From the NCBI GenBank assembly GCA_902762305.1, contig CACWNW010000003.1, positions 1 through 64,000 of the forward strand: a stretch of 64,000 nt of DNA. The letters run 5' to 3'. This document shows positions 11,216 through 20,876 of the stretch, piece after piece. Below the pieces are notes generated by a model. The model was not told where the DNA came from. It made no database searches and was given only the letters and a program-made list of their open reading frames with translations. Made by a program: the position numbers and the translations under genes. Source of the stretch: Fibrobacter succinogenes. Its GTDB lineage: Bacteria > Fibrobacterota > Fibrobacteria > Fibrobacterales > Fibrobacteraceae. Each line of letters starts with the position of its first letter. The stretch's first letter is position 1.

Positions 11216-11971
11216 ATGGCAGATAAAAAGAAGATACTCGTGATGGTAGGAAGCCCGAAAAACGAGCGGAGCGGAACGCTTATTCCCACAAAGGCGTTCG
11301 TTCAGGGGCTCGAAGAGAACGGCGACTACGAGACCGAATACCTCTTTATCGACAGGCTGAACATAAAGCCCTGCCGCGGATGCCTCAGCTGCTGGGGCCG
11401 CAAAGACGGCAGCTGCTTCATCAAGGGCGACGACGTTCCCTGGGTGCGCGAGAAGCTCACCAACGCGGACATCGTCATCTGGAGTTTCCCGCTGTACCTG
11501 TTCGGCGTTCCCGGCCAGATGAAGGTCTTGATGGACCGCATAGTCGGGATGGTCCACCCCTACATGGGCCAGAAACTGGAAAACGGCGCAAACGCCATGA
11601 ACTCGCACCTGCACGGGCTGCAGTTCCAGAAGGAAGGCCAGAAGATTATCCTGCTTTCGAGCTGCGCCTGGATGGATATAGACGTGGTGTACGAACCCAT
11701 CGTGAAGCAGTTCGACATCATCCTCGGGCACGAGGGCTACACGCTCATCGCGGCCCCCCAGATGCGCGCGCTCGACCACCGCGGCGGCCCGCGGCGCCTC
11801 GCCATGCTCCGTGAAAAATTCCGCAAGGGCGGCGAGGAACTCGCAAAGACGGGCAAGCTCTCGCAGGAAGCCATCGACATGATGCAGAAGCCCATCTTCA
11901 GCGAAGAGGCCTACGTGACGCTCGTGACCGAGTTCGTCACGCACATGTTCGACAGGCCGGACAACTTCTAG
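11216..11971 (+). CDS. Flavodoxin-family NAD(P)H-dependent oxidoreductase
   Basis: A 251-residue NADPH-dependent FMN reductase-type protein. The N-terminal phosphate-binding loop is ILVMVGSPKNERSGT, followed by the CRGCLSCWGRKDGSC-FIKGDD motif and WSFPLYLFGVPGQMKVLMDR, the standard substrate/flavin face of this family. It shares the C-x-G-C-x-x-C-W motif with the first half of the double flavodoxin at 6906, so they are distant relatives. It is divergent from rpsB and converges with the CE6 esterase gene, overlapping it by 4 bases. A TAAATT box ends 7 bases before the ATG and there is no ribosome site, suggesting a leaderless mRNA. Physiological substrate unknown. Confidence 0.85.
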   Translation: MADKKKILVMVGSPKNERSGTLIPTKAFVQGLEENGDYETEYLFIDRLNIKPCRGCLSCWGRKDGSCFIKGDDVPWVREKLTNADIVIWSFPLYLFGVPGQMKVLMDRIVGMVHPYMGQKLENGANAMNSHLHGLQFQKEGQKIILLSSCAWMDIDVVYEPIVKQFDIILGHEGYTLIAAPQMRALDHRGGPRRLAMLREKFRKGGEELAKTGKLSQEAIDMMQKPIFSEEAYVTLVTEFVTHMFDRPDNF

Positions 11972-13623
11972 AAGGAACCGACAAGCACCTTCTTCATGCC
12001 CGCCTTTCCGGCGCCACGTACCAGGTACACGCCCTGACGGATTCCCTTGAACCCATCCTTGACCATGCGTACCGCATCATCCATGCCGGCGGCCCTGAAG
12101 CTCGCCACACGCTGGCCCTGCATATCGAACAAACTAAAATTGCTTTCTGCCTCGGTCATGCCAAAGCGCACACCCGCGATTCTGTCGCTACCGCCGGAGC
12201 CGCCTACGGCCTTGAATTCCACATAGTCGATATCAATCCAGTCGTTCGTGATTTCGAGTTGGAGTTCGTGTTCGCCCGCCTTCAAGGTAGCCTTGCCGCC
12301 ACTCACGACGTTGAACGTTTCAAAGCCGTCCCCAGTATTGGCCATCTCCGTACCGATAGGCTGGTCATCCATGTAAAGCGTAAAGCTACCGGTTCCATTC
12401 TCGCCCGCCACGTTGGCAGAAATTTCGTATTCGCCATCGGCAGCGACTTTCACGGTGTACTTGAGCCATTCGCCCTTCTGGCAGTAGCCCACGACGATAC
12501 CCATGTTCGGCTGGTAAATATCCACGTCATCCTTGCGGAGCTTGCCGCCCTCGTTACCCTTGTTCAGGTCGTAGTAGGCAACGTCCGCACCGCCCTTGTT
12601 GTAGTTTTCGGCCTGTACCTTGCCCGGAATTTCAATCGGCTCGGTATAGGGGCCGTATTCCTCGGGAGGCTCGTCGGGCACCACGGACTGGCTCGGGTCC
12701 ACCAAGTTTACAGGAGGAGCATCCGGGTCAATCGTCTTGTCAATAAGCTTGAGCATCTCGGAGCAGTAGCGCCTGCCGAGTTCAATCACGCCCGCACGGC
12801 CGAAATGGTAGGGGTCCTTGCCGTTGCCCTGCAGGCCCTTCGAGGAGGCGAGCCCGAACTTCTTGAAGTTGTCCTTGAGCTGAGCGATGCCGCCGTTCTT
12901 GCTCCCGCAGCAGTTGTTGCCTTCCTGGAGCAACTCACCCGCCACGAACGGGACCTCGTTCTCGTCGAGGCCGAGTGCGTCTACGACATCCTTGTAGGTC
13001 TTGTAAACCGTCTTGCGCCAGTTAGCATCGGTACCGTCGCTTTCGCCCTGATGGAAGATGAAGCCCTTGATGACGCCGACTTCCTGCGCCTTCTTGGCAA
13101 GTTCCAGGATGCGTCCCGGAGGGTTGCCGTCGTAGTCGTTAATCCAGCCCCAGCCCTTGATATCCTTGCCGTCGCCGTTGAAATAGGCTTGGTACTGGTC
13201 CTTGTCGAAAGCGCGGATACTCACCGCACCGATAGCCACCGGGATGATGCCCACGGTGACGCCCGGGAGGGAATCCACCATAGCGCGGCCGAAGTAGTCG
13301 GCCGGGGAAAGGTTCTCGAAGGCATGGAACATCGGGGGAATCGCGGCCGCCCACTCGCCTTCCTTGATGGACTGCGTGGTGCTGCCGCTACGGTCCTTCG
13401 CATTAGCCGTGTGGGACGCCAGCATGATGAAGTTCTTGGGGGCCTGGGCCTGATCTTCGGAAGGGACGATATCGCCGTTGCCCGCCATGTTGGACTGCCC
13501 GTAGGCAATGTAGATGTGGAAATTGGGATTGGGGGCGGCACTGGCAAGCGTCGCCAACATCAGAACTCCGCCCACAAGCCACAAGACAAGGGTCAGAAAA
13601 TCCGAGATTTTTTTGACATCCAT
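11968..13623 (-). CDS. Secreted CE6-type acetyl (xylan) esterase with CBM6 and C-terminal paralogous module
   Basis: A 551-residue exported enzyme: signal peptide to about residue 29, then an SGNH-hydrolase domain of carbohydrate esterase family 6 (IYIAYGQSNMAGNGD with catalytic Ser44; FIFHQGESDG; DPYHFGRAG supplying the His). A family 6 carbohydrate-binding module follows (PGKVQAENYNKGG to NDWIDIDYVEFKAVG, about 335-475). The last ~70 residues (VRFGMTEAESNFSLFDMQG ... GVYLVRGAGKAGMKKVLV) look like the basic C-terminal Fibrobacter paralogous module found on secreted fibre-degrading enzymes and resemble a surface-sorting tail. The likely role is removal of acetyl groups from xylan so that xylanases can act. 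AGGAG precedes the ATG. Substrate inferred from family. Confidence 0.85.
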   Translation of the reverse strand: MDVKKISDFLTLVLWLVGGVLMLATLASAAPNPNFHIYIAYGQSNMAGNGDIVPSEDQAQAPKNFIMLASHTANAKDRSGSTTQSIKEGEWAAAIPPMFHAFENLSPADYFGRAMVDSLPGVTVGIIPVAIGAVSIRAFDKDQYQAYFNGDGKDIKGWGWINDYDGNPPGRILELAKKAQEVGVIKGFIFHQGESDGTDANWRKTVYKTYKDVVDALGLDENEVPFVAGELLQEGNNCCGSKNGGIAQLKDNFKKFGLASSKGLQGNGKDPYHFGRAGVIELGRRYCSEMLKLIDKTIDPDAPPVNLVDPSQSVVPDEPPEEYGPYTEPIEIPGKVQAENYNKGGADVAYYDLNKGNEGGKLRKDDVDIYQPNMGIVVGYCQKGEWLKYTVKVAADGEYEISANVAGENGTGSFTLYMDDQPIGTEMANTGDGFETFNVVSGGKATLKAGEHELQLEITNDWIDIDYVEFKAVGGSGGSDRIAGVRFGMTEAESNFSLFDMQGQRVASFRAAGMDDAVRMVKDGFKGIRQGVYLVRGAGKAGMKKVLVGSF

Positions 13624-13747: not shown

Positions 13748-13783
13748 AAAAAAAAGAAAAACCCCGGCATAGACCGGGGTTTT
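13748..13783 (-). terminator. Rho-independent terminator of rplM-rpsI
   Basis: Stem AAAACCCCGG / CCGGGGTTTT (13758-13767 with 13774-13783) followed on the minus strand by TTTTTCTTTTTTTTT. It lies 20 bases past the rpsI stop. Confidence 0.92.
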
Positions 13784-13803
13784 CCGTAAAAGCGATTCGC
13801 AGA

Positions 13804-14208
13804 TTAGCGCTTGCTGAACTGGAAGTGCTTACGAGCCTTCTTGCGGCCGAACTTCTTACGTTCAACGGCACGGGCGTCACGAGTCATGAGGCCTTCCTTC
13901 TTGAGGGCGGGCTTCACTTCGGCGTCGTTGGCGACCAAGGCGCGGGAAATGCCAAGACGGACAGCGCCCATCTGGCCGGCGATTCCACCGCCACGAGCGG
14001 TGACTTCGACGTCCCATTCTTCCGCGTTGCCGAGGATGGCGAACGGAAGGTTGGCAATCATGTTCTGCACTTCAGAGTGGAAGTAATCCTTGAAATCACG
14101 ACCATTGATAGTGCGCTTGCCGGTACCCGGCTTCAGGATCACAGCGGCGATGGCGTTCTTGCGGCGGCCCGTGCCACGGTAGATCTTCTTGTTCTTTGCG
14201 GTAGCGAT
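13804..14208 (-). CDS. rpsI: 30S ribosomal protein S9, apparently started at an ATC codon
   Basis: S9 is the 30S protein whose C-terminal KR tail reaches the P site; here it ends ARKHFQFSKR. The first ATG/GTG/TTG in frame is a GTG at 14142, but that would remove the conserved first strand. Reading upstream in the same frame gives ATAKNKKIYRGTGRRKNAIAAV, exactly the S9 N-terminus, beginning at ATC (14206-14208), which sits 8 bases after a perfect GGAGG. No in-frame ATG, GTG or TTG lies between that ribosome site and 14142. The simplest reading is a 134-residue S9, normal length, initiated at AUC. A base-call error (ATG to ATC) is the alternative. It lies 23 bases downstream of rplM. Confidence 0.88.
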   Translation of the reverse strand: MATAKNKKIYRGTGRRKNAIAAVILKPGTGKRTINGRDFKDYFHSEVQNMIANLPFAILGNAEEWDVEVTARGGGIAGQMGAVRLGISRALVANDAEVKPALKKEGLMTRDARAVERKKFGRKKARKHFQFSKR

Positions 14209-14231
14209 AGAGGTATCCTCCGTTCTAAAGA

Positions 14232-14660
14232 TTAGAAGTCAACGACTTCGGGGTTCTGCGCAGCGTGCGGATGTTCGGCGCCGGCATAGATTTTGAGTTT
14301 CTTAACCATCTTGTGGCCAAGAGCGCTGTGAGGGAGCATACCCCAGATAGCAGCGGTCAGCGGGGCGGTCGGGTCCTTCGCCATGAGGTCGGCGAAATTG
14401 ATCCAGCGTTCGCCGGCGATGTGACCGGTGTGGTGGAAGTATTCCTTGTTCAGGTTCTTGTTGCCGGTAACGGCAACCTTGCCGGCGTTGATGACAACAA
14501 CGAAGTCACCAGTGTCGACGTTCGGGGAATAGATGGCCTTGTGCTTGCCCATGAGGAGGCGAGCAACTTCGCTTGCAACGCGTCCCATCGGCTTGTCGGC
14601 GGCATCCACAAGCTTCCACTTGCGGGTGACGGACTTCGGGTTTACCGTAATGGTCTTCAT
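14232..14660 (-). CDS. rplM: 50S ribosomal protein L13
   Basis: A 142-residue L13 of normal length: KWKLVDAADKPMGRVASEVA, then LMGKHKAIYSPNVDTGDFVVV, NAGKVAVTGNK and GMLPHSALGHKMVKKLKIY. It is the first gene of the rplM-rpsI operon, with its own promoter at 14719-14747 and a shared terminator at 13748-13783. AGAGGA precedes the start. Confidence 0.97.
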   Translation of the reverse strand: MKTITVNPKSVTRKWKLVDAADKPMGRVASEVARLLMGKHKAIYSPNVDTGDFVVVINAGKVAVTGNKNLNKEYFHHTGHIAGERWINFADLMAKDPTAPLTAAIWGMLPHSALGHKMVKKLKIYAGAEHPHAAQNPEVVDF

Positions 14661-14718
14661 GTAAATCCTCTAGGTGAATTAGATTCCAGGGCATCGGCGC
14701 CCTAGGAAAAGCGAAACA

Positions 14719-14747
14719 AATATAGATGGTTTTCGCGAAGGCGACAA
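14719..14747 (-). promoter_or_regulatory. rplM-rpsI promoter
   Basis: On the minus strand TTGTCG (14742-14747), 17 bases and TATATT (14719-14724) followed by TG. Same architecture and TATATTTG core as the rpsB and 38460 promoters. Confidence 0.7.
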
Positions 14748-14798
14748 GGTGGAAAAATCACTTTTTTGCAAAAAAGTCCGAAAAATATTGGATTTTTG

Positions 14799-14825
14799 TT
14801 CTATCAATTATATTAATTGGTAGAA
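14799..14825. other. Perfect-length inverted repeat, 12-bp arms
   Basis: TTCTATCAATTA, loop TAT, TAATTGGTAGAA: 12 paired positions with a single mismatch (a U-G pair in RNA). It lies in the 208-base spacer between the CLCA-like gene and the rplM promoter. No U-run follows on either strand, so it is not a classical terminator. Operator or RNA hairpin, unassigned. Confidence 0.5.
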
Positions 14826-14869
14826 TTATATAAGTAATTTTGCTCGTTACACGTCAGTCAATAGATTTT

Positions 14870-17800
14870 TTATTGAAAAGTTCGCGAGCCAAAAAAAACT
14901 ACCTCATATCTTGTAAATACAATATTTTCGGCAACCGTCATTTCCCCAGCAACCCCATTTACCCATGCATTCATTCTATACGAACGACCACCTAAATTAT
15001 AAAGTTTCAACAAATAGCGCTTGCCTGGCACGAAATCAAATGCGTTCTCTGAATACCACCCCATTAACGGAATTGTTTCACCTTCAAACACCATAAATCC
15101 CGTCAGCGGAGCTCCATCTTCTGCAGCAAGCCCCACTTTAACCTTCATGGGAACCCAATCGTTAGGGAAGCCAACAATTTCCACCCACAAATCACCTTCC
15201 GCCACAACACGAATAGACTCGTCAACCCTCAACAACAAAGGCTTTGCCGGTTCACATCCATTATCACCAGGACATTGCGGAGTCCATTTGTTAACAGGAT
15301 TCGCAGCCATCGTTCCCACAAAGCGAAGATTATCAATCCAAACAGAATCAGCCGAATTCAAAACAATTTGGAAACGAATATCCGAATGAGGCTCGGAAAG
15401 CAATTCCAAAGCCTGTGCAGGCACATCAAATTCATAGGATTTCCAATTTCCAAAATACGGCTGGATAGTCTGTTGCGAACCTATTTGGATACGTTTGTTG
15501 GAGGACGGCACTGACATCCACAGTTCAACATTCCCAATCCAATACACATTTTGCGTATGGAGCGGGACAAAAATATCTAAACTCATTTTTTCACCAATCA
15601 ATTCAAAGTCCGCTGAAGAAACATTGCGACTCTCAATCGTTTTCCAACCAGCAGAAGTCATCAAACTTTTCATGCCTTCACTTTTTCTTTTTGAATCTAA
15701 AGAAGTTTCTGTCTCCAAAGAATGCCAATCACCATCCGTTTCAAAACGACCAATAGCAAATTCAGCGTAGCTCTTTTCAAGCAAAAGTAAATCATAATTT
15801 GCGCCATTTGAATTCGACCCGACAACACTAACAATATAACCAGGCAAGGCGTATTCTGCCGCCAACGGAACTGTTACAAAACCATTATCATTTCCCGATT
15901 CCACATTAACCGAATAAACAGGAACATCCCTATTCGACGCAGAGAATATCTGAATCTTATCAAAAGACTGCAAATCCCTTGAACTTAAGCGCAACGAATA
16001 ACTTTTCCCGGCTTGGGTCCCAACAATTTCAAAACGATCTTCATCAGTCCCAGACTGTAGGAACGCATTCACGCGAGTCTCTGGCGGGAGCTGCGCCAGA
16101 TTATCCAAAGGCTCATCACTACAGCAGCCGCTAACAACAAACTGACCATTACGAATGAGTTCAAATGAGGCCCCATCCTCTTTTTCAACAAAAAGAATTG
16201 AATCTGGCAATGACGTGCCAACACGAGTTGTATGCGCTTTACCTTTTTTATTCGATGCAGAAATTTCCCATCGATAAGTACCATTTTTATCAATAGGCGG
16301 AAAAGCAGCAAAGAAAATTCCATCACCCGCTCTGAAATCACCATTAATGCCATCGTCATGCAACATAAAAGACTGCTCAACACCATCACAATCAATCAGT
16401 TTTCCGACAACATCAATCCCCGCTAAAAGGCCATCTTCACCACGAACAGAAGCTGTAAAACTTCTTCGAGAAGGCCACTCAAAAGGTTCAGTCGAAGACA
16501 TTGACACATTCAAAGAATGCTTATGATATTCATTGGTAGAAATAATCCTGTACTCAACAGATCTATCATTCAATTTATTTTTCACCTTAACAAAAGGTTC
16601 CGGCAAACGCGATAAGGTTAACGAATCAATTTCAGCAACAAAATAATTTTCATTTCCTATTTTTTCGCTATTTATAAGAATCGGCAACACACTACCTGTT
16701 TTTGATAAAATCTCAATCGGATTACCTACAGATGTTCCCTCATAAACACCATACACCTTCGCAAGTTTAGATCTTTGCGGAACATATACGTCAAAAGAAC
16801 TATTATTCGCAGGCAAAGAAGAAGCTCCAATTTGTTCATTCCCAGAAATGGACGAAATGGGTGCTCCTACCGCATCAATAACTTTCAATGGCAAATTATT
16901 TTCATTTTCAAAATAGGAACCACCCGTTTCAGAAGCAAGACTAGAAAGCAGTTTTTTATCAGCATCAGCACCATAAGCAAATGCATGTATAGAAATACCC
17001 TTTTCTTTGATGAGGTTTATAACGTCCTCTTTCTTCTGAGTACTAGCATTATCAAGTCCATCTGAAATTACGTATATAATCTTTAAGCTAGAATTCTTTT
17101 GGAAACTATTCCCTGCAGCATAAAGTGCATCATACAACGCTGTTGAAGAGCTTGGCTGAATCGGATCAATTGAAGCATTGATAGCAGCAGCATCAGGATC
17201 AAATCTCGGGGGATACGTATTCGAGACAACTTGATTAAATGAATAAACACCAACAGATATATTAGATACATCATATGTAGTCTTCGGAAAGAAGCTCAAA
17301 AAACTCTGTGAAACAAATTTTGCAGCTTGTTTTGCCATTGAAATTTTAGTAATTGGTTGATTATAATCATCTACTACACAATTTGGTCCATTCTTTACAC
17401 AATCATCCATACTAAAAGAATGATCTAAAAGAACAATTATCTCCACTTCAGGCTTATCAACCCATTCTATTTTCAAATGTTTTTGAGCCATTGACGCAAT
17501 TTCTACATCACTCTTACCACTATATTCAACTTTCAAATATGGCAATGTATATAATGGTAACTCGTTATTGTCGGGACAAGTGCCTCGCATCCACACTGCA
17601 TAACCATCTTGAATTCTGACTTTGGTTTCGTCATAATTCAACAAAAAAGACTTGGCTGTATAAATATCAGAAGAATTTGGCGCTCTATTCCTTAACGATT
17701 TATACCAATACCTAGAATTATTATCTAAAGGTAAACCATACCATAAATCAAATTCAGGATTTTTTGTCAACATATTCCATGCAGACACAGGACGTCCATT

Positions 17801-18880
17801 TTGATCCCGATAAGCCAAACCTTGTGGAGTCAACTCATTTAAATTATAAGCAGTACTTAAATTAGCCCACTGCCATTGCACCTCATTTTTCCCACATTTT
17901 TGCCTAGACTCCGGAATATCATATGGAGAAAACATTATGGTATGCGGATTTCCAAGCATTCCCCAAGTTCCCCCATCAGCAGGATACGACACCCCCCAAA
18001 TTCCAGAACCTGCATCTTTAATATCTATTCGTTGATTTCCTACACCCTTCAAATTAAATGAATAAATTCCATTTTCAGCATCATCCCATACCTGATCTAT
18101 AACAGCATAATCGCTAATCAAATAGCCGTTATCAGGATACGGTCGACCATCACTTTGATAACGAGTTCTAATTGTACCTTGACTTAACCCTGTAGGAATG
18201 GTACCTCCCTCATCAGGAAAAAAAACAACAGGAGCACCAGACTTAAAAGGCAACATCAACAGTTTAAACTCATTCTTATTTTGTATCCACTTGTTAGTTA
18301 TAGTAATTACATCATTAACGGGATTTGCCGTTATCGCTATATCATAATCAAAATCAACGCCATTTAAGAGAATTTTATTTGGTTTCCTTGAGGTTATTGG
18401 ATACTCATCCAAAAGGGAATACGCATAATGCATCATTTCATGAAGAAGGGTCATTGCAGCAAAAAATTCTAAATCATCTGTTCCAATTTTCAGGTCATTA
18501 TTATTCACCCAATCGTCAGAATACGAAAGTCCACCATTATTTAAAAAACCTCCAACATTAGCGCTCGGCCAATATCCTGCATTCTTCCATTCAATATCGG
18601 CACTAGAGCAATATCTACCCTTAGGATAAAAGTTAACACGTCCTAAATAGTTTCCGCCATTAGTAGCCTCATAGATACCATTTGCCAAATGGCGAATTAT
18701 ATTCTCATACGAAGATTTTTCCGATGGTGTCGGATTTTTTTCCAAACATATCGTTATATCAAGAGCTTCCTCTTTAGGGCTACCATCTGCATAAACAGAA
18801 ACCGTGCGAACTCCACTAAATGTAGAATTAGCAGCATAGATACTAGAAACAAGGCTTAAAATAAGAAATATTTTTTTCAT
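14870..18880 (-). CDS. Very large secreted CLCA-like protein: metzincin-type protease plus von Willebrand A domain
   Basis: A 1336-residue exported protein with signal peptide MKKIFLILSLVSSIYA. Near residue 147 is LLHEMMHYAYSLLDEY; the HExxH with DEY seven residues later is the zinc-site pattern of the CLCA (chloride channel accessory) metalloproteases, in which Asp replaces the third metzincin His. A vWA domain follows at about 480-670 with a complete MIDAS (DHSFS at ~485, SSSTAL, SDGLD at ~606). Near 840 the stretch HDDGINGDFRAGDGIFFAAF with KNGTYRWEISA matches the post-vWA beta region of CLCA proteins. The remaining ~450 residues are beta-rich, carbohydrate-binding-like modules. Likely a surface or secreted protease with metal-dependent adhesion. 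The gene is strongly AT-rich relative to neighbours, suggesting acquisition. A TATATT box ends 9 bases before the ATG. Confidence 0.75.
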   Translation of the reverse strand: MKKIFLILSLVSSIYAANSTFSGVRTVSVYADGSPKEEALDITICLEKNPTPSEKSSYENIIRHLANGIYEATNGGNYLGRVNFYPKGRYCSSADIEWKNAGYWPSANVGGFLNNGGLSYSDDWVNNNDLKIGTDDLEFFAAMTLLHEMMHYAYSLLDEYPITSRKPNKILLNGVDFDYDIAITANPVNDVITITNKWIQNKNEFKLLMLPFKSGAPVVFFPDEGGTIPTGLSQGTIRTRYQSDGRPYPDNGYLISDYAVIDQVWDDAENGIYSFNLKGVGNQRIDIKDAGSGIWGVSYPADGGTWGMLGNPHTIMFSPYDIPESRQKCGKNEVQWQWANLSTAYNLNELTPQGLAYRDQNGRPVSAWNMLTKNPEFDLWYGLPLDNNSRYWYKSLRNRAPNSSDIYTAKSFLLNYDETKVRIQDGYAVWMRGTCPDNNELPLYTLPYLKVEYSGKSDVEIASMAQKHLKIEWVDKPEVEIIVLLDHSFSMDDCVKNGPNCVVDDYNQPITKISMAKQAAKFVSQSFLSFFPKTTYDVSNISVGVYSFNQVVSNTYPPRFDPDAAAINASIDPIQPSSSTALYDALYAAGNSFQKNSSLKIIYVISDGLDNASTQKKEDVINLIKEKGISIHAFAYGADADKKLLSSLASETGGSYFENENNLPLKVIDAVGAPISSISGNEQIGASSLPANNSSFDVYVPQRSKLAKVYGVYEGTSVGNPIEILSKTGSVLPILINSEKIGNENYFVAEIDSLTLSRLPEPFVKVKNKLNDRSVEYRIISTNEYHKHSLNVSMSSTEPFEWPSRRSFTASVRGEDGLLAGIDVVGKLIDCDGVEQSFMLHDDGINGDFRAGDGIFFAAFPPIDKNGTYRWEISASNKKGKAHTTRVGTSLPDSILFVEKEDGASFELIRNGQFVVSGCCSDEPLDNLAQLPPETRVNAFLQSGTDEDRFEIVGTQAGKSYSLRLSSRDLQSFDKIQIFSASNRDVPVYSVNVESGNDNGFVTVPLAAEYALPGYIVSVVGSNSNGANYDLLLLEKSYAEFAIGRFETDGDWHSLETETSLDSKRKSEGMKSLMTSAGWKTIESRNVSSADFELIGEKMSLDIFVPLHTQNVYWIGNVELWMSVPSSNKRIQIGSQQTIQPYFGNWKSYEFDVPAQALELLSEPHSDIRFQIVLNSADSVWIDNLRFVGTMAANPVNKWTPQCPGDNGCEPAKPLLLRVDESIRVVAEGDLWVEIVGFPNDWVPMKVKVGLAAEDGAPLTGFMVFEGETIPLMGWYSENAFDFVPGKRYLLKLYNLGGRSYRMNAWVNGVAGEMTVAENIVFTRYEVVFFGSRTFQ

Positions 18881-18889
18881 AAAGAAGAA

Positions 18890-18895
18890 AATATA
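18890..18895 (-). promoter_or_regulatory. -10 box of the CLCA-like gene (near-leaderless)
   Basis: TATATT on the minus strand followed by nine bases (TTCTTCTTT) and the ATG at 18880. No ribosome-binding sequence fits in the interval, and no good -35 is seen. Confidence 0.4.
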
Positions 18896-18969
18896 AATTT
18901 ATCTATAAAGCAGAACGTTTATTCTTTTTTTTTACAAACTCGTTTCTTTTTTTTATGTATTTTTCTTTT

Positions 18970-19671
18970 ATGCGGATTCTTTTCTTCACAATTTTCGTGT
19001 TTTCCATTTCAATTTTGGCACAAACATCGCCAAACCCAAACGAACGGTGCGATGCCATTCCAATGTGCCTACAAATTTCAACGGCATTGGGTATGCAAGT
19101 CTTTTCTATAAATACAAAATATGAAAGTACAGAAGAAAAGTATCCAGACCCAGCAACGAGACCTTCCTTAGAGCACACCATCAACATTTCGGGAATCATC
19201 GACAGCGTGTGGGATAATGACGCCTGCGTTTTTGAGCAACAGCAGAAAGAAAACTGTTCATTCAAGGTGCTCTATAAAGGAAAAAATTCCGCTGATATCT
19301 CCAACAACCAGCCCATTATGTTTACGAAACGCATTTCGTTGAAGCACTTTAAAACAATGCCCGACGGAAGCCCCAATATGAGCACAGTGATTGATTCTAA
19401 TTATATCTATGTTCCCCAAAATATCGATATAAATATATCTGATTCTGTTTATATAGAAGGATACTCCGCTATCGTCAACAATTATTGCAACAACACCTGC
19501 TCCTATACCCCCATAGCTATAGTCGTCGCTAATTACACGTTTTTTCCAACAATAACTTCTATAAAGAAAAAAACACAATCCTCAATTCCGTCAAGGCAAA
19601 AACGTAACCGCGACGCTATCGGCAAAAAACAAAAAAACAAGCGCAACACCGCCCTAAAAATAATCTACTAA
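18970..19671 (+). CDS. Secreted protein of unknown function with basic C-terminal tail
   Basis: The predicted product is 233 residues, starting MRILFFTIFVFSISILAQ, a signal peptide; an in-frame ATG five codons upstream (18955) is also possible and neither has a ribosome site. The mature part has paired Cys (RCDAIPMC, NDACVFEQQQKENC, YCNNTC) and a beta-rich character (INISDSVYIEGYSAI resembles a thin OB-like or immunoglobulin-like strand pattern). The last 35 residues are strikingly basic (SRQKRNRDAIGKKQKNKR). It is divergent from the CLCA-like gene across a 89-base AT-rich promoter region and shares its low GC, so both probably belong to one acquired island. No family recognised. Confidence 0.6.
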   Translation: MRILFFTIFVFSISILAQTSPNPNERCDAIPMCLQISTALGMQVFSINTKYESTEEKYPDPATRPSLEHTINISGIIDSVWDNDACVFEQQQKENCSFKVLYKGKNSADISNNQPIMFTKRISLKHFKTMPDGSPNMSTVIDSNYIYVPQNIDINISDSVYIEGYSAIVNNYCNNTCSYTPIAIVVANYTFFPTITSIKKKTQSSIPSRQKRNRDAIGKKQKNKRNTALKIIY

Positions 19672-19678
19672 ATCGGTG

Positions 19679-19688
19679 CCCCCCCCCC
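19679..19688. repeat. Homopolymer tract, ten C
   Basis: A run of 10 C, followed by GTCCCCG, lies 8 bases after the stop of the preceding gene. It is intergenic, so slippage would not change a protein. It may also be an assembly-prone site. Confidence 0.8.
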
Positions 19689-19793
19689 GTCCCCGTTCCG
19701 AGGATTATATCCACTAAGCAGCAAAGCTACAAGTGGCTATTAAGAACAAATCCGGGGCAGGTTCAACAGGGCCGGAATGACATTGCGGGAGGG

Positions 19794-20876
19794 TTATGCG
19801 CGGGGTTTTGGGGGACGGTTCTTGCGCATGAACGCGAGGGCCTTGCTGCGGCGGCGGGCCGTTTCTTGCAGGTTCACGGACTCGTCGTACTCGTCCACGA
19901 TTTCGCGGCCGAGGATTTCTTCGAGCACGTCCTCGAGGCTCACGATGCCCGCGATGGCCCCGAACTCGTCGACCACGCCCACCATGTGCCCGCGCTGTTT
20001 CAAGAAGCGGAGCAGGAGCTTGTCGAGCATGACACTGTCGGGAATGAGCTGCAGAGGCCGCATGAGCTGTCTGAGCTTCACGTCGCGGTGGCCTTCGGCG
20101 AGCTGGTTGTAGGCATCGCGCCGGAGGACGATTCCTATCCAACGGTCCTTGCTGTCGCCATAGAGCGGTATGCGGGAAAACGGCCAGTTGCCGCGTTCGT
20201 CGAGGGTCTCGCCGATAGTCTTGTCGGCAGGCAGGGTAAACACGACCTGCCGCGGGGTCATCACTTTGCGCGCGGCAACCGACTTGAGCGCAAGAATGTT
20301 CTTGATGACGGAAGCCTGCTGCCTGTCGATGACATCTTCGCGGAGCCCGAGGCTCACGAGGCTGTTTATGTCCTCGATGCTCACGTCCTTCTTCTCTTCG
20401 TCTTCGCGCGTCCAGCGCTTGGTAAGCGTGAGGCAGAGCCAGATTAGGCCGGTCCACCCGAGAATCTTCGTGATATAGAAGAACGGCACGGCGACCAGCG
20501 GGGCAAACGTCTTCGCCTGCTTGACCCCGAGCGTCTTGGGCGTGATTTCACCAAAAAGGAGGATAAGGATGGTGAGGATAACCGGAAGCGCCATCGCACC
20601 CGTCGAAGAAAGCCGCTTGACCGCAAGCGCCGTCGCAAGCGAGGCCCCCACCGTATTCGCCACCGTGTTCACGATAAGCACCGAGGCGATATAGCGGTCG
20701 ATATTATCCTTCACGTGCGTGAGGTACTTGGCCGTAAATTTCTTGTTCTTCTGCAGGTACTCCACCGTCGCGGGCGGCACGCTGTAGAACGAAGCCTCCG
20801 TCACGGAGCAGAACGCCGAGAAGAAAAGGCAGCACAGGACTGTGGCGACAATGGCAATCACTCTGCGCCTCCCCAA
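19794..20876 (-). CDS. CorC/CNNM-type membrane protein (DUF21 plus CBS pair)
   Basis: A 360-residue inner-membrane protein. Residues 1-150 form the DUF21 transmembrane domain with the signature [16 protein letters not shown] and [18 protein letters not shown]; a CBS pair follows (about 195-320: [48 protein letters not shown]). The C-terminal CorC_HlyC domain of longer homologues is absent; instead it ends in a basic tail. Family members are linked to magnesium or sodium-magnesium exchange and envelope stress; older annotations as haemolysin are doubtful. The start overlaps the 3' end of the SppA-like gene by 19 bases, so the pair is co-translated, an unusual partnership. Confidence 0.88.

What the first reader, a model, noticed from the sequence alone, without database searches (positions are those of the whole stretch)
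14870..18880. Bacterial CLCA-like protein: HExxH...DEY protease joined to a vWA domain in an AT-rich island
The alignment of HEMMHYAYSLLDEY with the CLCA zinc-site pattern, a complete MIDAS vWA after it, and a post-vWA HDDGINGDF...GDGIFFAAF segment like that of animal CLCA proteins together reproduce the CLCA domain order in a bacterium. Animal CLCA proteins self-cleave and modulate chloride channels and mucus. In a gut or rumen bacterium a secreted version with extra carbohydrate-binding-like modules could act on host or plant surface glycoproteins. The low GC suggests horizontal acquisition.
Basis: partly seen in the sequence, partly recalled or inferred. Interest (0 to 1): 0.7.

Follow-up and report, generated by a model that had tools for sequence, protein, structure and literature searches.

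The report
Secreted CLCA-like protease with paired partner
A rumen Fibrobacter makes a secreted zinc-protease-like protein built like the animal CLCA proteins, always encoded next to a small secreted partner that is swapped together with the protease part and is kept when the protease is lost, which looks like a protease and its antidote.

Summary
ORF 14870-18880 (-) is an intact 1336-aa secreted protein with HEMMHYAYSLLDEY at residues 147-160, a complete-MIDAS vWA, and a post-vWA 'DDGxxGD..AGDGIFF' segment, in an AT-rich island. 'Bacterial CLCA' is only partly right. PF08434 (CLCA_N) is not reached in this protein or anywhere in the phylum, but the best sub-threshold hits in both Fibrobacterota and Chloroflexia are relatives' zinc sites, and three of nine full-length orthologues match the animal CLCA model TIGR00868 (not this protein). 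Bacterial CLCAs were published in 2013. The 'CLCA-like' post-vWA motif is the common choice-of-anchor-X domain.

New: the gene is half of a pair. A small secreted protein (18955-19671 +) lies beside all 10 copies found, often in tandem. Its probable OB-fold core co-varies with the protease domain (Mantel r 0.90) and not independently with the C-terminal part. In one genome pair, protease domain plus partner form a divergent block between 95% identical flanks. The partner persists without the protease in 23 genomes, five beside protease remains, and orphan copies are under purifying selection. Best reading: a secreted metalloprotease with a cognate inhibitor/immunity protein, exchanged as one cassette. 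Inhibition itself is untested.

The parts
14870..18880 (-). c1: CLCA-like metalloprotease-vWA gene, 1336 aa
   Evidence: full-length homologues
18830..18880 (-). signal peptide (residues 1 to about 17)
   Evidence: sequence; a hydrophobic N-terminus ending near Ala is seen in the homologues
17447..18823 (-). zincin-like protease domain (residues about 20-478), the part that co-varies with the partner
   Evidence: (predicted order strand-helix-strand-strand-helix, with HExxH in the second long helix)
18401..18442 (-). zinc-site motif HEMMHYAYSLLDEY (residues 147-160)
   Evidence: invariant H147, E148, H151, D158, Y160
16841..17446 (-). vWA domain with complete MIDAS (residues about 479-680)
16256..16366 (-). 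choice-of-anchor X motif (residues 839-875)
   Evidence: NF041940 3.8e-9; 9 of 9 members
15281..15760 (-). module at residues about 1041-1200, possibly a carbohydrate-binding jelly roll (inferred), shared with other Fibrobacterota proteins including a C25 peptidase of the same genome
14873..15280 (-). conserved C-terminal region (residues 1201-1336), 89-99% identical among four copies whose protease domains differ
18881..18954 (.). 74-bp head-to-head intergenic region between the two genes
18955..19671 (+). c0: small secreted partner, 238 aa (start more likely at 18970, MRIL..., by comparison with the family)
19156..19554 (+). variable, probably OB-fold core of c0 (residues about 68-200)
   Evidence: low-confidence model; nearly all best structural rows are OB-fold proteins, Z 3-4
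19606..19671 (+). conserved c0 C-terminal tail NRDAxGK...IxY
   Evidence: the only occurrence of this coding pattern in the genome
15783..18943 (.). stretch deleted in sister genomes G141 and G110, which removes c1 residues 1 to about 1033 and leaves c0 intact
   Evidence: shared junction 15782|18944

Best explanation
c1 is an exported zinc metalloprotease of the broad bacterial CLCA-like group: a zincin domain with HExxHxxxxxxDEY, then a vWA that probably grips a protein ligand through a metal, then beta-sandwich modules. c0 is its cognate exported partner, a small probably OB-fold protein that most likely binds and blocks the protease domain, protecting the producer and its kin from it. The two are encoded head to head, so protease domain and partner core can be exchanged in one recombination event while the outer parts stay constant. 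Lineages that lose the protease keep the partner because it still protects against proteases of neighbours. Shown: both proteins, their linkage, co-variation, block exchange, loss of the protease with retention of the partner, purifying selection on orphan partners. Inferred: catalysis, binding, inhibition, and the use against competitors.
For: Zinc-site residues and MIDAS invariant. All 10 c1 copies in 9 of 168 Fibrobacterota genomes have c0 beside them, 7 of 10 directly head to head, 3 with one gene between. c0 occurs in 32 genomes, so in 23 without an intact c1; five of these keep c1 remains beside an intact c0. Orphan c0 pairs with dS over 0.05 have dN/dS 0.11-0.21. Among four copies with 89-100% identical residues 1041-1336, protease domains are 89% (G136a/G105), 70% (G136b/G112) or 58-62% identical across the two types; adjacent c0 cores are 66, 55 and 31-40%. 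Mantel protease versus c0 core r 0.90, p 5e-5; partial r 0.86 with the C-terminal part held constant, -0.44 for the converse. In G136a versus G112, flanks are 95-98% identical and the stretch from mid-c1 through c0 drops to 54-76%. c0 tails stay 93-98% identical in that set. Spare tandem c0 genes match the adjacent c0 of other genomes (91%).
Against: No biochemical data. Head-to-head linkage alone could produce the co-variation. c0 lacks the N-terminal Cys that TIMPs use, and its model is weak (pLDDT 57). No type 9 secretion tail was found in c1 or c0, so export beyond the periplasm is not shown. No lethal target is known. The vWA varies partly independently of the protease domain. The exchange evidence rests on one set of four related copies in three genomes.
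Confidence: 0.45

Rival explanations
1. Resistant-target replacement, as for Bacteroidales BSAP toxins: c0 is a surface or periplasmic protein that the protease of other strains attacks, and the cassette carries the protease together with a resistant version of its target.
For: The same facts fit: toxin-like gene beside c0, c0 without protease at the same chromosomal site in other genomes, block exchange. BSAP genes lie beside genes for resistant target replacements (PMC4999547).
Against: c0 is absent from most genomes (136 of 168), so it is no common target. It occurs in 2-3 tandem copies, which suits inhibitors better than an allele replacement.
Confidence: 0.15
2. c0 is the protease's substrate or processed partner: c1 cleaves or anchors c0 (for example at the conserved NRDAxGK tail) and the OB-fold part does a separate job such as adhesion.
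For: Conserved charged tail unique to this family; strict linkage; animal CLCA2 cleaves its own precursors in trans, abolished by E165Q (PMC10669480).
Against: c0 stays under purifying selection where the protease is gone, and three c0 copies lack the tail altogether.
Confidence: 0.17
3. Ordinary secreted protease for digesting feed or mucus glycoproteins, with c0 a harmless neighbour.
For: Fibrobacter lives in the rumen (named relatives); the C-terminal module is shared with other secreted proteins, including a C25 peptidase.
Against: 10 of 10 linkage at several chromosomal sites, co-variation and tandem copies do not suit a chance neighbour.
Confidence: 0.1
4. Variable surface protein under selection by phages or protozoa, with c0 as its chaperone or co-anchor; the protease may be a structural remnant.
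For: Mosaic divergence of vWA and N-domain; relatives with substituted active sites exist (L063, REFAR for HExxH).
Against: In this family all zinc-site residues are kept, and the N-domain is under purifying selection (dN/dS 0.07-0.25).
Confidence: 0.13

Closest known systems
CLCA family (animal CLCA1-4; Pfam PF08434, NCBIfam TIGR00868) and the bacterial CLCAs of Lenart et al. 2013 (PMC3650047)
   Same: Order zincin motif HExxH(x6)DEY, vWA with MIDAS, beta-sandwich with DDG..DG motif; some members match TIGR00868 in order; part of the group has substituted active sites, as in animals.
   Different: Below every curated cut-off; a long insertion between the zinc site and the vWA; no Cys-rich region and no Fn3 hit; extra C-terminal modules; a cognate partner gene.
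Peptidase M64 (IgA peptidase)
   Same: Motif HExxHxxxxLxDEY; Lenart et al. name it the nearest known protease family to CLCA.
   Different: One weak PF09471 hit in a distant relative only (0.0074); vWA present.
RTX (serralysin-type) metalloproteases with periplasmic Inh/APRin inhibitors
   Same: Secreted metalloprotease with a small Sec-exported inhibitor encoded beside it (PMC3034196).
   Different: Different protease family; Inh lies in operon order, not head to head, and (own knowledge) is an 8-stranded barrel rather than an OB fold; no exchangeable block was looked for there.
Polymorphic toxin-immunity and polyimmunity loci (PMC3482391)
   Same: Variable effector domain with linked variable partner, tandem partners, orphan partners.
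   Different: Variable domain is N-terminal; no known trafficking module; toxicity unproven.
TIMP/NTR OB-fold inhibitors of metzincins
   Same: Small exported, possibly OB-fold protein linked to a zincin; TIMP-2 is among the weak structural rows (Z 3.1 and 3.0).
   Different: No TIMP-type N-terminal Cys; Z is too low for homology and many unrelated OB folds score higher.
Bacteroidales BSAP toxins with adjacent resistant-target genes
   Same: Antagonism-type gene beside a variable partner, exchanged together.
   Different: BSAPs are MACPF pore formers.

Membership tests
CLCA (PF08434 / TIGR00868) | CLCA_N domain over the Pfam cut-off | tested here: not met
   No hit in the own genome at E 0.001; no genome over the cut-off among 168 Fibrobacterota. 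Best hits in the relatives' zinc sites are sub-threshold: G082 8.6e-4, Chloroflexia 0.004-0.2.
CLCA (PF08434 / TIGR00868) | Zinc site HExxHxxxGxxDEY | tested here: met
   HEMMHYAYSLLDEY, spacing exact; G is S here but G in most orthologues. The same spacing is shared by M64.
CLCA (PF08434 / TIGR00868) | vWA domain after the protease domain | tested here: met
   PF00092 6e-11; complete MIDAS.
CLCA (PF08434 / TIGR00868) | Order vWA - post-vWA - beta-sandwich colinear with the CLCA model | tested here: inconclusive
   L058 4.6e-10 over model 307-689 and 3 of 9 members, but not this protein, and all far below the curated cut-off of 900 bits.
CLCA (PF08434 / TIGR00868) | Cys-rich region after CLCA_N and fibronectin-III tail | tested here: not met
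   Two Cys between residues 160 and 478 (329, 435); no fn3 hit.
CLCA (PF08434 / TIGR00868) | Zinc-dependent self-cleavage | not testable with these tools
   needs expressed protein and an E148Q mutant.
CLCA (PF08434 / TIGR00868) | Zincin fold of the HExxH domain | tested here: inconclusive
   Predicted order (model numbering) E20-31, H37-57, E62-70, E81-83, H120-139 carrying HExxH suits a zincin, but mean pLDDT is 57 and fold searches returned no clear match.
Peptidase M64 | PF09471 match | tested here: not met
   None in this protein; one relative at 0.0074, below cut-off.
Polymorphic toxin-immunity system | Variable effector domain linked to a co-varying partner, with constant flanks | tested here: met
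   based on four related copies plus six others
Polymorphic toxin-immunity system | Orphan partner genes kept without the effector | tested here: met
   23 genomes, five with effector remains; purifying selection.
Polymorphic toxin-immunity system | Toxicity of the effector and protection by the partner | not testable with these tools
   bench work needed
TIMP-like inhibitor (for c0) | OB/NTR fold | tested here: inconclusive
   Most best rows are OB-fold proteins, but Z is 3-4 and pLDDT 57.
TIMP-like inhibitor (for c0) | N-terminal Cys of the mature protein chelating zinc | tested here: not met
   Signal-peptide ends read by eye put Q, T or G at the mature start; the invariant Cys lies further in.

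The most novel reading that the evidence does not exclude
A family of secreted CLCA-like metalloproteases used in competition between Fibrobacter lineages, each with a matching OB-fold secreted immunity protein, encoded head to head so that catalytic domain and antidote swap as one recombination block between constant ends.
Probability: 0.35. Interest if true: 0.8.

Novelty: new variant of a known kind. Interest (0 to 1): 0.58.

Why it matters
If right, it gives the bacterial CLCA-like proteases, described in 2013 without a function, a testable role, and provides natural cognate protein partners for a CLCA-type protease domain. It would also be an antagonism system in Fibrobacter, a key rumen cellulose degrader, with a simple head-to-head layout that explains how effector and antidote stay matched during exchange.

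Tried and rejected
PDB sequence search with the single protein and the protease profile: nothing useful; the full profile found only vWA proteins. Foldseek and VIA-align with the 465-residue protease model were filled by unrelated matches in the low-confidence middle; no zincin was listed, which does not exclude the fold. Foldseek with the c0 model: no significant match. The c0 tail as a general sorting tag: rejected, as its coding pattern occurs once in the genome. PHROGs: weak vWA-region hits only. PADLOC: none. Pfam and NCBIfam for c0: none credible. Promoter scan: no excess over shuffles, none in the intergenic gap. A long inverted repeat or element boundary around the cassette was not found.
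Full report
What is there. The ORF at 14870-18880 (-) encodes 1336 aa. It is intact and begins with an apparent signal peptide. HEMMHYAYSLLDEY lies at residues 147-160. Pfam gives one strong domain, vWA (6e-11), and the MIDAS residues D486, S488, S490, T580 and D607 are invariant among homologues. The region is AT-rich, and so is the divergent neighbour gene. The genome belongs to the genus Fibrobacter: loci found by name (L096-L099, Fibrobacter from rumen and yak reticulum) carry the same genes as genomes listed as same genus.

Is it a CLCA? PF08434 gives nothing in this genome and nothing over its cut-off in 168 Fibrobacterota. However, its best hit in the phylum (8.6e-4, G082) overlaps the zinc site of a relative that reads AHEWGHYAYGLGDEY, and its best hits in Chloroflexia mostly fall on the zinc sites of the same kind of protein. 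A Fibrobacterota relative (L060) and a Chloroploca protein (L101) align over about 700 residues, from the protease domain through vWA to the choice-of-anchor X motif (6e-50), and L060 aligns with the window protein in the zinc-site region (2e-18) and the vWA. The animal CLCA model TIGR00868 is hit by L060 (1.2e-13), L101 (3.5e-6) and the orthologue L058 (4.6e-10, in order over vWA to beta-sandwich), and by 3 of 9 full-length Fibrobacter members, though not by this one. So it belongs to a broad bacterial CLCA-like group and works, on sequence grounds, like a CLCA-type zincin, but it fails the formal membership test. Lenart et al. (PMC3650047) reported bacterial CLCAs in 2013, including Chloroflexi with their own architectures, and noted that the motif is shared with M64. 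The predicted secondary structure order suits a zincin, but the model is weak and fold searches were uninformative.

The partner gene. Comparing the neighbourhoods of the homologues showed that a small secreted protein, here 18955-19671 (+), is beside every one of the ten copies found. Seven are directly head to head; in three a PDZ-domain gene lies between and a second copy sits at the 3' end. Several loci carry two or three tandem copies. The family has no Pfam or NCBIfam match. The window copy's model is poor (pLDDT 57), but nearly all its best structural neighbours are OB-fold proteins at Z 3-4, TIMP-2 among them; this supports an OB-like fold and nothing more specific. The C-terminal tail NRDAxGK...IxY is conserved and its coding pattern occurs only here in the genome.

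Distribution. Full-length c1 is in 9 of 168 genomes (the G122 copy runs off its contig end); c0 is in 32. Of 23 genomes with c0 but no intact c1, five keep c1 remains beside c0 (G141, G110, G004, G007, G158). In G141 and G110 the same junction, 15782|18944, removes c1 residues 1 to about 1033 and spares c0. Orphan c0 genes are intact in most cases, with dN/dS 0.11-0.21 where dS is large enough to judge. Not all are intact: the copy in G143 contig 2 is split.

Exchange as a block. Four copies (G136a, G105, G136b, G112) have 89-100% identical residues 1041-1336 but differ in the protease domain: 89% within one type, 70% within the other, 58-62% between them. Adjacent c0 cores follow the same pattern (66, 55, 31-40%), while c0 tails are 93-98% identical. 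Between G136a and G112, flanking DNA is 95-98% identical; identity falls to 54-76% from mid-c1 through c0 and recovers in the next gene. dS in the protease domain is about 2 against 0.17 in the flanking gene, so the difference reflects imported alleles rather than fast local change. Over all ten pairs, protease-domain distance and c0-core distance correlate (Mantel r 0.90, p 5e-5); with the C-terminal part held constant the partial correlation is 0.86, against -0.44 the other way round. Linkage alone could yield this, because the two variable parts face each other across 74 bp; it does not by itself prove contact. The vWA is exchanged partly on its own. Spare tandem c0 genes of one genome match the adjacent c0 of another (91%).

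Interpretation. The pattern (linked variable effector domain and partner, tandem spares, orphan partners under selection, effector decay) is that of effector-antidote systems. The nearest worked-out analogue for a secreted metalloprotease is the Inh/APRin inhibitor beside RTX proteases (PMC3034196); polyimmunity loci (PMC3482391) and BSAP-type target replacement (PMC4999547) are the other models. I put inhibitor/immunity first because of tandem copies and retention without the protease; target replacement and substrate readings stay open. Against a toxin role: no type 9 tail in c1 or c0, although a type 9-like C-terminal domain occurs in the intervening PDZ protein of other genomes, and no target is known. 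No step here shows catalysis or inhibition.

Noticed in passing
window about 13750-19900 versus G141 (L105) and G110 (L106): About 6 kb around the cassette is 97-100% identical to two other genomes (apart from the deleted stretch) while flanks are mostly 83-97%: a recent exchange tract, or cross-assembly of metagenome genomes, since contigs break there.
   Followed up: partly
L062 and L063 (G044), near residue 140: Relatives with the zinc site replaced (AREFARYTYAxNYQY for HExxH...DEY), like the inactive animal CLCAs in which H to R is common (PMC3650047).
   Followed up: partly
L057:6853-7662, L056:8463-9356, L058:10973-11806, L115:6558-7205: A secreted PDZ-domain protein, with a type 9-like sorting domain in the copy scanned from L057, lies between c1 and c0 in three genomes and beside an orphan c0 in a fourth; c0 ends in IxY-COOH, a possible PDZ ligand.
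   Followed up: no
L012:106-2232 (own genome, contig 8): A C25 (gingipain-type) peptidase carries the same module as c1 residues 1051-1202.
   Followed up: partly
window 11968-13623 (-): SASA-type acetylesterase with CBM6 and a weak match to the type 9 sorting tail, a typical Fibrobacter fibre-degrading enzyme.
   Followed up: no
L126:6302-7001 (G143 contig 2): At the same chromosomal site as the window, a c0 split by a frameshift with no c1.
   Followed up: no
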